64,000 nt of DNA from Candidatus Rokuibacteriota bacterium (GTDB taxonomy: Bacteria > Methylomirabilota > Methylomirabilia > Rokubacteriales > CSP1-6): contig VGLJ01000008.1 in assembly GCA_016866775.1 (NCBI GenBank), positions 1-64,000 on the forward strand, read 5' to 3'. The notes below the pieces were generated by a model. The model saw nothing but the letters and a program-made list of their open reading frames with translations. It made no database searches and was not told the DNA's origin. Within the stretch, counting starts at the first letter, position 1. Every line of letters starts with the position of its first letter. Shown here in pieces: positions 24,582-27,487 of the stretch. Both the position numbers and the translations under genes were made by a program.

Positions 24582-27487
24582 ACGATCAGCTCGACCCCTA
24601 TCGGGCGAAGCGCGATCCGAAGCGCACGCCGGAGCCATTCGGCACTCGCGGAGGGCGCGGATTCATTCCGCGCCCGGAGCGTGGGGGGCTTGGGGGGCCG
24701 CCTCTGGCGGCCCCCCATCTCTTCGTCATCCAAAAGCATGCCGCCAGAAGGCTCCATTACGACGTCCGGCTCGAGATCGGCGGCACGCTGAAGAGCTGGG
24801 CGGTCCCGAAGGGGCCGTCGGTGCGCCACGGCGAGCGGCGTCTCGCCGTGCACGTCGAAGACCATCCCGTCGAGTACGCCGACTTCGAAGGCGTGATCCC
24901 GCGTGGCAACTACGGCGCGGGCGAGGTGATCGTCTGGGACCGCGGCTGGTATCGATCCGCGAAACCCGAGGCGCTCGAGACGCAGCTCGCGCGCGGACGG
25001 CTGGAGATCGAGCTCTACGGCGTGAAGCTGCGCGGCCGGTTCAGCCTCGTGCGAACCACGAAGGGCCGCGACTGGCTCATGCTGAAGAACGAGGACCCGT
25101 GGGCCGGGGGCAACGAGCCGACGGAGCGCTTTCCGGAATCCATTCTCTCCGGGCTCACGGTCGAAGAGCTGCGCGAGGGGCCGACGCGTGTCGCACGCCT
25201 GCGCGCGCGGCTCACGGCCGTCGGCGCGCCGGTCCGTCGGGTCGTCGCCGCGGAGCAGCCGGTCATGCTCGCGACCCTCGCGGCCGAGCCCTTCTCGCGC
25301 CCGGGCTGGCTGTTCGAGCTGAAGTACGACGGCGTGCGGGTGCTGGCCGAGCGCGACGGCGGCGCCGTCGAGCTCTACGGCCGCGCGGGCCAGCGGTTCA
25401 CGCCGCGCTATCCGGAAGTCGTCGCGGCGCTGCGCACGGTGCCGCTCGAGCGCTTCGTGCTCGACGGCGAAGTCGTCGCGCTGGACGAACGCGGGCGGCC
25501 GAGCTTCCAGCGCCTGCAGACGCGCATGCATCTCGCGCGCGGCCCGGACATCGAGGCCGTGCGCGGCGCGACGCCGGTCACCGCCGTGTTCTTCGACGCG
25601 CTCGCGCTCGACGGGCGCGATCTCCGCGGCCTGCCGCTCGAGACGCGGAAGGCCTGCCTCGCGCTCCTCCTGCCCGCGCGCGGCGTGGTGCACTACGGCG
25701 AGCACGTCGTCGAGCAGGGCGAAGCGTTCTATGACGCGTGCTCCGAGCAGCGCGTGGAAGGCATCGTCGCGAAGCGCGCGAACAGTCGCTACACCGGCGG
25801 GCGCTCGAACGACTGGATCAAGATCAAGTGCCACCTGCGCCAGGAGTTCGTCATCGGCGGGCTCACCGCGCCGCAGGGCACGCGCTCGCGGTTCGGCGCG
25901 CTCCACGTCGGTGTCTACGACGGCGACGCGCTGAGATACGTCGGCCGCGTCGGCACCGGGTTCGACGACGCGTCGCTCGACGCCATCTGGCGCCGCCTGC
26001 AGCCGCTTCGCCGCGCGACCTCACCGTTCACGCGCGGGACGCCGACCGGGCGCGGACACACGTGGGTCGAGCCGGCGCTGGTGTGCGAGGTGCGCTTCAC
26101 GGAGTGGACTCTCGACGGCGGCTTTCGTCACCCGACGTTCCTCGGGCTGCGCGATGACAAGCCGCCTCTCGAGTGTCGGCGCGAAGTCGTGGCGGAGGAG
26201 GAGGGGCGACGGGGACGCGGGGTGCCCCCGCCCTCCTCTGACCCCCGACCCGCCGACGCACGGTCTGACGGTCGTCATTTCCATCGCCGGGCGGCGGCCG
26301 CTTCTGGCCGAGGAAAGGGAACGGGTCACCCGGAGGGCGGGGGCACCCCGCGTCCCCGTCGCCCCTCCTCCTCCGCCGCGGCTTCAGACGACACGCGAGT
26401 TGGGACGTTCGATCGCGCAGGCCGAAGACGGCCGCGCGGCAGCAGAGACATTGGTGAGTCCACTCCCGACGAAGTCGGGCTCAGCAACGTCGTCAGGCTC
26501 AGCAACGTCGACAAAGTGTTTTGGCCGGACGAAAAGTTCACCAAAGGGGATGTGCTCGCCTACTACGACACCGTGACGCCGCTGCTGCTTCCCTACTTAC
26601 GGGATCGGCCGCTTGTTTTGACCAGGTATCCTGACGGGATTTCGGGGAAATCGTTCTATCAGAAGGATGCGCCGCATTTTGCGCCCCCTTGGATTCGGAC
26701 CGCGCGGATCGCCGCGCCCGACGCGGGACGCGAGATCGATTACCTCGTCGTCGACGATCGCCTGAGCCTGCGCTACGTGATCAACCTCGGCGTCATTCCG
26801 CTCCATCTGTGGGGATCGCGCGTGCCGTCGCTCGACACGCCGGACTGGCTCATCCTCGATCTCGATCCCAAAGGCGCGCCGTTCGGTCACGTCGTGCGCG
26901 TCGCGCGCGCGCTGCGGGAGATCCTCGACGACCTCGAGGTCCCCGCGTACGCGAAGACCTCCGGCGCGACGGGGTTGCACATCCTCGTTCCGCTGGGCGC
27001 GCGCTATTCATGGGAGGAGTGCCGGACGTTCGCGCGGCTGCTCGCGACGCTCGGCGTGGAGGCCGAGCCCGCGATCTCGACGATGACCCGCCAGATCCGC
27101 GAGCGCGAGGGAAAGGTCTACATCGACTGGCTGCAGAACGTCCGGGGTCAGACGATCGCGGCGCCGTTCTCGGTGCGGCCGCTGCCGGGCGCGCCGGTCT
27201 CGTGTCCGCTTCGATGGGACGAGGTGACGGCGCGGCTCGATCCGCGCGCGTTCACGATCGCGACGGTGCCGAAGCGCTTCGCGAAGCTGCGCGATCCGAT
27301 GGCGCCTGTGCTGCGAGACGGCGTGGACATCGCGGCGGTGCTCGGCCGCCTCGGGCGTCAGCGCGCGGCGACGGCCGGACGCGGCCCCGGCGGACGCGGC
27401 CCCGGCGCTAACCGGGGCTCGTCAGGTCAGCGCTCGCAGGGCGCGAACGCGGAGAGGCTCTTCGCGAAGCCGTACTCGCGGCTCTGA
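24578..27487 (+). CDS. ligD: multifunctional NHEJ DNA ligase LigD (PE-Lig-Pol order) with two in-frame repeat insertions
   Basis: FVIQKHAARRLHYDVRLE (PE), ELKYDGVRVLAE (ligase), KVFWPDEKFTKGDVLAYY...DRPLVLTRYPDGISGKSFYQKDAP (polymerase). Confidence 0.95.
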   Translation: MNDQLDPYRAKRDPKRTPEPFGTRGGRGFIPRPERGGLGGPPLAAPHLFVIQKHAARRLHYDVRLEIGGTLKSWAVPKGPSVRHGERRLAVHVEDHPVEYADFEGVIPRGNYGAGEVIVWDRGWYRSAKPEALETQLARGRLEIELYGVKLRGRFSLVRTTKGRDWLMLKNEDPWAGGNEPTERFPESILSGLTVEELREGPTRVARLRARLTAVGAPVRRVVAAEQPVMLATLAAEPFSRPGWLFELKYDGVRVLAERDGGAVELYGRAGQRFTPRYPEVVAALRTVPLERFVLDGEVVALDERGRPSFQRLQTRMHLARGPDIEAVRGATPVTAVFFDALALDGRDLRGLPLETRKACLALLLPARGVVHYGEHVVEQGEAFYDACSEQRVEGIVAKRANSRYTGGRSNDWIKIKCHLRQEFVIGGLTAPQGTRSRFGALHVGVYDGDALRYVGRVGTGFDDASLDAIWRRLQPLRRATSPFTRGTPTGRGHTWVEPALVCEVRFTEWTLDGGFRHPTFLGLRDDKPPLECRREVVAEEEGRRGRGVPPPSSDPRPADARSDGRHFHRRAAAASGRGKGTGHPEGGGTPRPRRPSSSAAASDDTRVGTFDRAGRRRPRGSRDIGESTPDEVGLSNVVRLSNVDKVFWPDEKFTKGDVLAYYDTVTPLLLPYLRDRPLVLTRYPDGISGKSFYQKDAPHFAPPWIRTARIAAPDAGREIDYLVVDDRLSLRYVINLGVIPLHLWGSRVPSLDTPDWLILDLDPKGAPFGHVVRVARALREILDDLEVPAYAKTSGATGLHILVPLGARYSWEECRTFARLLATLGVEAEPAISTMTRQIREREGKVYIDWLQNVRGQTIAAPFSVRPLPGAPVSCPLRWDEVTARLDPRAFTIATVPKRFAKLRDPMAPVLRDGVDIAAVLGRLGRQRAATAGRGPGGRGPGANRGSSGQRSQGANAERLFAKPYSRL
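24642..24718. repeat. palindromic repeat element C, in frame in ligD N-terminal linker
   Basis: GCACTCGCGGAG-[GGGCGCGGA-N5-TCCGCGCCC]-GGAGCGTGGGGGGCTT-[GGGGGGCCGCC-TCT-GGCGGCCCCCC]. Confidence 0.9.
26191..26377. repeat. palindromic element D with perfect 46-bp arms, in frame in ligD Lig-Pol linker
   Basis: 26191-26236 GGCGGAGGAGGAGGGGCGACGGGGACGCGGGGTGCCCCCGCCCTCC is the exact reverse complement of 26332-26377. Confidence 0.95.
26479..26510 (+). repeat. 18-bp-period tandem duplication GCTCAGCAACGTCG in ligD linker
   Basis: two copies of the 14-mer at 26479 and 26497 (encodes GLSNV-VRLSNV). Confidence 0.85.
27377..27406 (+). repeat. 15-bp tandem duplication near ligD 3' end
   Basis: GGACGCGGCCCCGGC x2. 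Confidence 0.9.

What the first reader, a model, noticed from the sequence alone, without database searches (positions are those of the whole stretch)
26181..26386. Perfect 46-bp inverted repeat inside ligD between ligase and polymerase domains
26191-26236 and 26332-26377 are exact reverse complements with a 95-nt interior; beyond them pairing continues imperfectly (CGAAGTCGT versus GCGGCTTCA). The ORF reads through as low-complexity EEEGRRGRGVPPPSSDPRPADARSDGRHFHRRAAAASGRGKGTGHPEGGGTPRPRRPSSSAA, with the normal ligase end (TFLGLRDDKPP) before it and polymerase start (NVDKVFWPDEKFTKGD) after it. The mRNA could form a very strong hairpin in mid-CDS, which might modulate translation or domain folding.
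Basis: partly seen in the sequence, partly recalled or inferred. Interest (0 to 1): 0.8.

Follow-up and report, generated by a model that had tools for sequence, protein, structure and literature searches.

The report
Palindromic repeat element inserted within LigD
The perfect inverted repeat in this DNA-repair gene is one copy of an apparently undescribed family of repeated hairpins in Rokubacteria, in which the loop is conserved but the long paired stem differs at every site; here it sits in frame in a disordered protein linker and is probably kept paired by copying of one arm onto the other.

Summary
The repeat is real: 46 bp exact (54 bp at 96%), loop 95 nt, fold z-score -12, nothing comparable in a Markov null. 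It is not private to ligD. The ~100-nt loop is a dispersed repeat: nine copies in this genome, and a related loop in 28 of 58 genomes of the same Rokubacteriales family, none in other families of the class. Nearly every copy has its own stem, usually 30-54 bp. Stems are unrelated between copies whose loops are 96% identical. At one orthologous locus in a ten-species genus the two arms match each other at 96% but match other species no better than shuffled sequence, while loops stay ~80% identical. Copies sit just after stop codons or in frame in protein linkers: LigD (in several species) and, in this genome, also a gamma-glutamyltransferase and a lipoyl-E2 enzyme. The sister LigD has 56 fewer linker codons. 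In several ligD genes the flank beyond the right arm resembles an inverted copy of conserved LigD coding sequence, so arms seem to be built from, or homogenised with, host DNA by hairpin template switching (inferred). It works like Rickettsia palindromic elements but evolves differently. A ligD-specific regulatory hairpin is not supported. Loop mobility and any RNA function are unproven.

The parts
24578..27487 (+). ligD CDS, 969 aa: phosphoesterase, ligase and polymerase domains, open through the element
   Evidence: Pfam LigD_N, DNA_ligase_A_M, DNA_ligase_A_C, LigD_Prim-Pol; ORF list; homologues
26183..26236 (+). left arm of the stem (54 nt; 26191-26236 exact complement of the right arm)
   Evidence: the repeat finder; arm sequence not shared with the other eight copies
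26235..26333 (+). conserved loop, core A (TCTGACCCCCG ... TTCCATCG ... GGGAACGGGTCACCC), the repeated part of the element
   Evidence: nine copies in this genome, 75-84% identical to this or to the C86 copy
26332..26385 (+). right arm of the stem
   Evidence: the repeat finder
26386..26465 (+). right flank that resembles an inverted copy of the conserved LigD coding sequence left of the element; shared with sister protein P0002 (SDDTRV-TFDRAGR)
   Evidence: local alignment with the reverse complement of the left flank, p 0.001; P0002 alignment
43999..44132 (+). second in-frame palindrome of the same architecture (41-bp arms, 52-nt loop of another loop family) inside a gamma-glutamyltransferase gene (42861-44714)
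   Evidence: IR scan, Pfam PF01019, translation, homologue loop lengths
6736..6876 (.). third long palindrome (41-bp exact arms, 59-nt loop), upstream of an isochorismatase-like gene and about 38 nt from the end of a neighbouring minus-strand ORF
   Evidence: IR scan; ORFs; Pfam
58328..58391 (+). decayed core A fragment (start of loop) directly after a TAG stop codon
   Evidence: 72% match; sequence; hit

Best explanation
The feature is one member of a Rokubacteria family of dispersed hairpin repeats: a conserved loop of about 90-100 nt that is scattered through the genome, carried on a stem of mostly 30-54 bp whose sequence is not conserved. Shown: the loop is repeated; the stem is copy-specific and nearly perfectly paired; the two arms change together at orthologous loci; copies sit just after stop codons or in frame in protein linkers; the LigD linker is 56 codons longer than in the sister protein. 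Inferred: the arms are made from, and kept identical by, hairpin (quasi-palindrome) template switching, in which a nascent strand folds back at the loop and copies one arm and the adjoining host DNA onto the other side. In ligD this would have turned part of the conserved ligase coding sequence into the inverted right flank. The element is tolerated because it is open in frame and falls in a flexible interdomain linker, so the simplest reading is a selfish or passive palindrome, not a ligD regulator. How the loop reaches new loci is not known.
For: Loop, not arms, is what recurs. 81 copies: ungapped stem median 37 bp, own-arm score 34.5 against 10 for swapped arms. Pairs with 96% identical loops have arms at random identity. 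At an orthologous locus arms within an element 96%, between species 62-67% (shuffled 61%), loops 79-82%. Outer flanks of the ligD element are an inverted copy at p 0.001 here and 0.0005 in L075 and L101; 21 of 81 copies below 0.05. In-frame copies in LigD, GGT and E2. 71 of 72 copies are open in some sense frame. Insert predicted disordered. Arm homogenisation by template switching is documented in yeast (PMC8604942) and E. coli (PMC7202029).
Against: No event was observed directly: no DNA-level empty site for a young copy was available. Three of nine ligD loci tested show no outer inverted similarity (L103, L078, L072). Arm-to-arm copying alone does not explain the conserved loop or its spread. 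The A.C over G.T mismatch bias suggests strand-specific selection on folding, which a purely mutational account does not predict. Some copies in genera g4, g13, g14 and g22 have transposon-like outer ends.
Confidence: 0.62

Rival explanations
1. It is a functional structured RNA (3'-end element, small RNA or protein-binding hairpin) whose stem only has to be paired; compensatory selection keeps the stem while its sequence drifts. The ligD copy is a by-product.
For: The loop has 27 invariant columns in 56 copies; the consensus fold closes it with covarying stem pairs; mismatches favour wobble on one strand, 42 to 14; 68 of 69 copies lie 3' of a gene; an element is kept at one locus in nearly all ten species of a genus.
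Against: No Rfam match; identical multi-base changes in both arms between orthologues (L151 against L193) are hard to reach one compensatory change at a time; several copies lie inside coding sequence; loss of the loop is seen in G065 and truncation in G007.
Confidence: 0.25
2. It is a conventional miniature inverted-repeat transposable element that carries its arms as terminal inverted repeats.
For: Some copies have shared outer ends (CTAGTGTCCCGTC ... GAAGTCATGTTAA on one or both sides); a few pairs, such as L204, L206 and L207, share arms completely.
Against: Arms are not shared between most copies, even at 96% loop identity; no shared ends among the nine copies of this genome.
Confidence: 0.08
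3. The loop inserts into hairpins that were already there, such as terminators.
For: Position just after stop codons; one orthologue (G065) has a decayed stem without the loop.
Against: No long palindrome with an empty or very short loop was found in 864 kb of this genome; intrinsic terminators are much shorter than 40 bp (general knowledge).
Confidence: 0.08
4. It is a ligD-specific mRNA hairpin that modulates translation or domain folding.
For: Very stable fold; hairpins recur at the same ligD linker in other Rokubacteria and the frame is always open.
Against: Most copies are outside ligD; closest LigD homologues lack it; strand bias points to the antisense strand; insert predicted disordered.
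Confidence: 0.05
5. Assembly artefact.
For: Metagenome assembly; pieces of the element lie at contig ends (C5:37-79, C88:17050-17092).
Against: The same architecture with a conserved loop occurs in many separately assembled genomes. The protein identical to the window's GGT is also on a 190-kb contig, longer than this genome's 106-kb contig, and the identical LigD is listed on a contig of 16.6 kb.
Confidence: 0.02

Closest known systems
Rickettsia palindromic elements (RPE), as reviewed in PMC10969869
   Same: Palindromic repeats of about 150 bp in several families, repeatedly inserted in frame in protein-coding genes and translated.
   Different: RPE families are reported to encode a conserved peptide and to lose repeat identity with time (PMC6649704 discussion); here the arms stay near perfect and are hypervariable while the loop is conserved; host phylum and sequence differ.
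Coding palindromes in nematomorph mitochondrial genes (PMC6649704)
   Same: Near-perfect inverted repeats inside coding genes, arms kept identical by a proposed conversion or template-switch process, position changing between species.
   Different: There both arms encode conserved protein and no shared loop is described; here a conserved loop defines the element, and most copies are intergenic.
Quasi-palindrome template switching (E. coli PMC7202029; yeast PMC8604942)
   Same: Arms of imperfect inverted repeats are made identical by fold-back copying.
   Different: Known cases are short arms (tens of bp or less) with short spacers; here arms reach 40-54 bp with 50-100-nt loops and the loop is a genome-wide repeat.
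REP, ERIC and similar intergenic palindromic repeats (e.g. PMC3733652)
   Same: Multi-copy, short, mostly intergenic, able to fold; near gene ends.
   Different: Those families are recognised by conserved ends or stems; here the stem varies and the loop is conserved.

Membership tests
Rickettsia palindromic elements (RPE) | in-frame insertion in protein-coding genes | tested here: met
   LigD in several species, GGT and E2 in this genome
Rickettsia palindromic elements (RPE) | occurrence in Rickettsia and sequence homology to a named RPE family | not tested
   Host is Candidatus Rokubacteria (titles); no RPE sequence was compared
Rickettsia palindromic elements (RPE) | conserved encoded peptide | tested here: inconclusive
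   Linker peptides of L074, L075, L101 and L103 share short stretches from the loop (e.g. GPRG, GWAPS), none from the arms; frame use at other loci not compared
MITE | terminal inverted repeats shared between copies | tested here: not met
   Arms at random identity between most copies; outer shared ends only in some genera
MITE | target-site duplication and a related full-length transposon | not tested
   No transposase search was made
Rfam RNA family | score above a family's gathering cut-off | tested here: not met
   No match in the window at gathering scores; only sub-threshold hairpin models such as miRNAs at lax threshold
Template-switch (quasi-palindrome) palindromes | arms change together so that pairing is kept | tested here: met
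   Orthologous loci: 96% within, 62-67% between
Template-switch (quasi-palindrome) palindromes | observed correction of one arm by the other between an ancestor and a descendant | not testable with these tools
   No close strain pair with DNA available

The most novel reading that the evidence does not exclude
A mobile loop that builds its own stem: a conserved ~95-nt sequence enters a site and the neighbouring host DNA is copied in inverted orientation to the other side, giving each copy a private, perfectly paired stem that keeps evolving by arm-to-arm copying. That would be a genomic parasite defined by its loop and not by its ends.
Probability: 0.3. Interest if true: 0.85.

Novelty: new variant of a known kind. 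Interest (0 to 1): 0.62.

Why it matters
Repeats are usually recognised by conserved ends or stems. Here the stem changes completely between species while staying paired, so ordinary repeat finders would see only a short, diverged loop. The family offers many natural replicates for measuring arm homogenisation in bacteria, and it is a further bacterial case, beside Rickettsia, of palindromes that enter protein-coding genes in frame and lengthen protein linkers.

Tried and rejected
Assembly artefact: rejected by many separate assemblies and longer independent contigs. Known RNA family: no Rfam match. Terminal inverted repeats carried by a transposon: arms are not shared between most copies. Sense mRNA hairpin under selection: the mismatch bias points to the other strand. 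Insertion into ready-made palindromes: none found empty in 864 kb. Core A was not found outside this genome except for one weak 35-nt match; the link to other genomes came through the related core C in LigD loci. DNA of the sister LigD (P0002) could not be fetched, so its site was read only at protein level. A literature search for Rokubacteria and palindromic repeats found nothing on such an element in the open papers held. A first version of the mismatch count was dominated by the shared inner stem and outer noise; it was replaced by the non-redundant count that leaves out the inner 14 nt.

Full report
OBSERVATION. The fold energy is 12 standard deviations below shuffles, and chance gives essentially nothing of this size. 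The gene is a fused LigD of 969 aa with phosphoesterase, ligase and polymerase domains, and the repeat occupies residues about 536-603 in the linker between ligase and polymerase.

THE LOOP IS A REPEAT. Searching the window's own genome with the element found mainly the interior, not the arms, elsewhere. Nine copies of this ~100-nt 'core A' are present. Each is flanked by its own inverted repeat, with ungapped arms of 32-54 bp whose sequence differs from copy to copy. A scan of 864 kb of this genome gave seven long inverted repeats and the Markov null none. The loops belong to more than one family: core A, and a second family with GCGAGGAC near its 3' end (window 6736-6876, window 43999-44132, L031).

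RELATIVES. LigD loci of named Rokubacteria show hairpins at the same linker with a related loop, 'core C' (L074, L075, L101, L103; L078 has a different loop). Core A and core C share TCCATC and GGGAACGGGTC in the same order (read by eye). Core C is found in 28 of 58 genomes of the family (a few are weak single matches) and in no genome outside that family among 96 of the class. The search scores only a limited number of candidates per genome, so copy numbers are lower bounds.

STEM VERSUS LOOP. Of 81 copies (nine core A, 72 core C), 66 have an ungapped stem of 30 bp or more, median 37. The pairing score is 34.5 for own arms and 10 for arms swapped between copies. Within a genome, copies with loop identity of 0.9 or more have mean arm identity 0.72, and several pairs with 96% identical loops have arms near the random level (0.61-0.64 against 0.58). 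At one locus present in all ten genomes of one genus, arms within an element are 96% identical, left arms of different species are 62-67% identical, the level of shuffled arms (61%), and loops are 79-82% identical (five and seven elements compared). One species (G065) keeps only a decayed stem without the loop, and in G007 one of the two loops is cut short. So the stem sequence is free to change, but both arms change together.

STRAND. Among 68 non-redundant stems, mismatches beyond the inner 14 nt are A.C on the core-sense strand 42 times and G.T 14 times (p 2e-4; sign test per copy p 0.001). A.C on one strand is a G.T or G.U wobble on the other, so pairing is better preserved on the strand antisense to core-sense, which in ligD is the strand antisense to the gene. 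This is evidence for strand-specific folding, of RNA or single-stranded DNA, but copies are not fully independent and no tree correction was made.

WHERE THEY SIT. By a simple GC3-based gene call, 68 of 69 copies lie 3' of at least one gene and only one in a divergent region; the stop codon is most often 35-98 nt from the loop, at or just outside the arm. In this genome three elements lie instead in frame in proteins: LigD; a gamma-glutamyltransferase (PF01019), in the loop just before the conserved DGTTH, where such enzymes are known to cleave themselves (general knowledge); and the linker after the lipoyl domain of an E2 enzyme (identified by eye). The window's LigD linker between CRRE and SDDTR is 66 residues against 10 in the 81%-identical sister P0002. 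The window's GGT loop region is 74 residues against 48 in P0124, from the same sister contig length. AlphaFold2 gives the LigD insert pLDDT 25-35 and no secondary structure (residues 538-634; overall model modest, pTM 0.42). Of 72 core C copies 71 are open in at least one sense frame, so an in-frame, translatable insert is easy to obtain in such GC-rich DNA.

ORIGIN OF THE ARMS. In ligD the left flank is conserved coding sequence (TFLGLRDDK...CRRE in nearly all homologues). The right flank beyond the arm resembles its inverted copy: window p 0.001, L075 and L101 p 0.0005, L074 0.013; L103, L078 and L072 show nothing. Over all 81 copies, 21 have p below 0.05 where 4 are expected (same call; the null is small, 40 comparisons per copy, and some of the 21 reflect transposon-like ends in genera g4, g13, g14 and g22). 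The simplest reading is that host DNA on one side was copied in inverted orientation to the other, and that arms are afterwards kept identical by the same process. Template switching at inverted repeats is documented to homogenise arms in yeast (PMC8604942) and E. coli (PMC7202029), and conversion was proposed for nematomorph coding palindromes (PMC6649704). This step is inferred, not shown.

IS THE ligD COPY INHERITED? Hairpins at the same linker occur in the window's genus and in a distant genus, in the same orientation, but most LigD proteins closest to the window have short ordinary linkers. Repeated insertion at a permissive site and an old insertion with many losses are both possible; the data do not decide.

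WHAT IT IS NOT. It is not an Rfam family. It is not a MITE with shared ends, as far as this genome shows. It is unlikely to be a ligD-specific translational device, because the closest LigD homologues lack it and most copies are outside genes. An RNA function for the family as a whole remains possible: the loop alignment has 27 invariant columns in 56 copies.

VERDICT. Real, and part of a larger pattern: a family of loop-conserved, stem-hypervariable palindromes in Rokubacteria, with in-frame copies in LigD of several species. It works like Rickettsia palindromic elements in its use of coding sequence (PMC10969869), but differs from them in how stem and loop evolve, so I file it as a new variant of a known kind.

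Noticed in passing
43999-44132: A second in-frame palindrome in the window, inside a gamma-glutamyltransferase just before the DGTTH motif; loop of another family.
   Followed up: partly
6736-6876: A third long palindrome with exact 41-bp arms and a 59-nt loop that itself holds a small hairpin (TTGGTGAGCCGGCGAAGCCGGCGCACCAA), upstream of an isochorismatase-like gene.
   Followed up: partly
24686-24716: A small palindrome (GGGGGGCCGCC TCT GGCGGCCCCCC) in the N-terminal linker of the same LigD; P0014 has a similar peptide there.
   Followed up: no
L031:11964-12063: In-frame palindrome in a lipoyl-E2 (dihydrolipoamide acetyltransferase-like) linker of the same genome.
   Followed up: partly
L009:37-79, L008:1501-1543, L016:164-188: Pieces of the element lie near contig ends of this assembly, so more copies may be lost at assembly breaks.
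   Followed up: no
L161, L181, L191, L207 (both flanks of the loop): In genera g4, g13, g14 and g22 some copies are bounded on one or both sides by a shared sequence CTAGTGTCCCGTC ... GAAGTCATGTTAA pointing inward, like transposon ends.
   Followed up: partly
P0022 (LigD) and P0136 (gamma-glutamyltransferase): Two proteins of other Rokubacteria share the odd peptide SEWGS in the same two linkers (LigD and GGT), which suggests yet another palindrome family entering the same protein loops.
   Followed up: no
L019, L020, L021, L193, L195: Copies often come as two loops in opposite orientation a few hundred bases apart, each with a different stem.
   Followed up: partly
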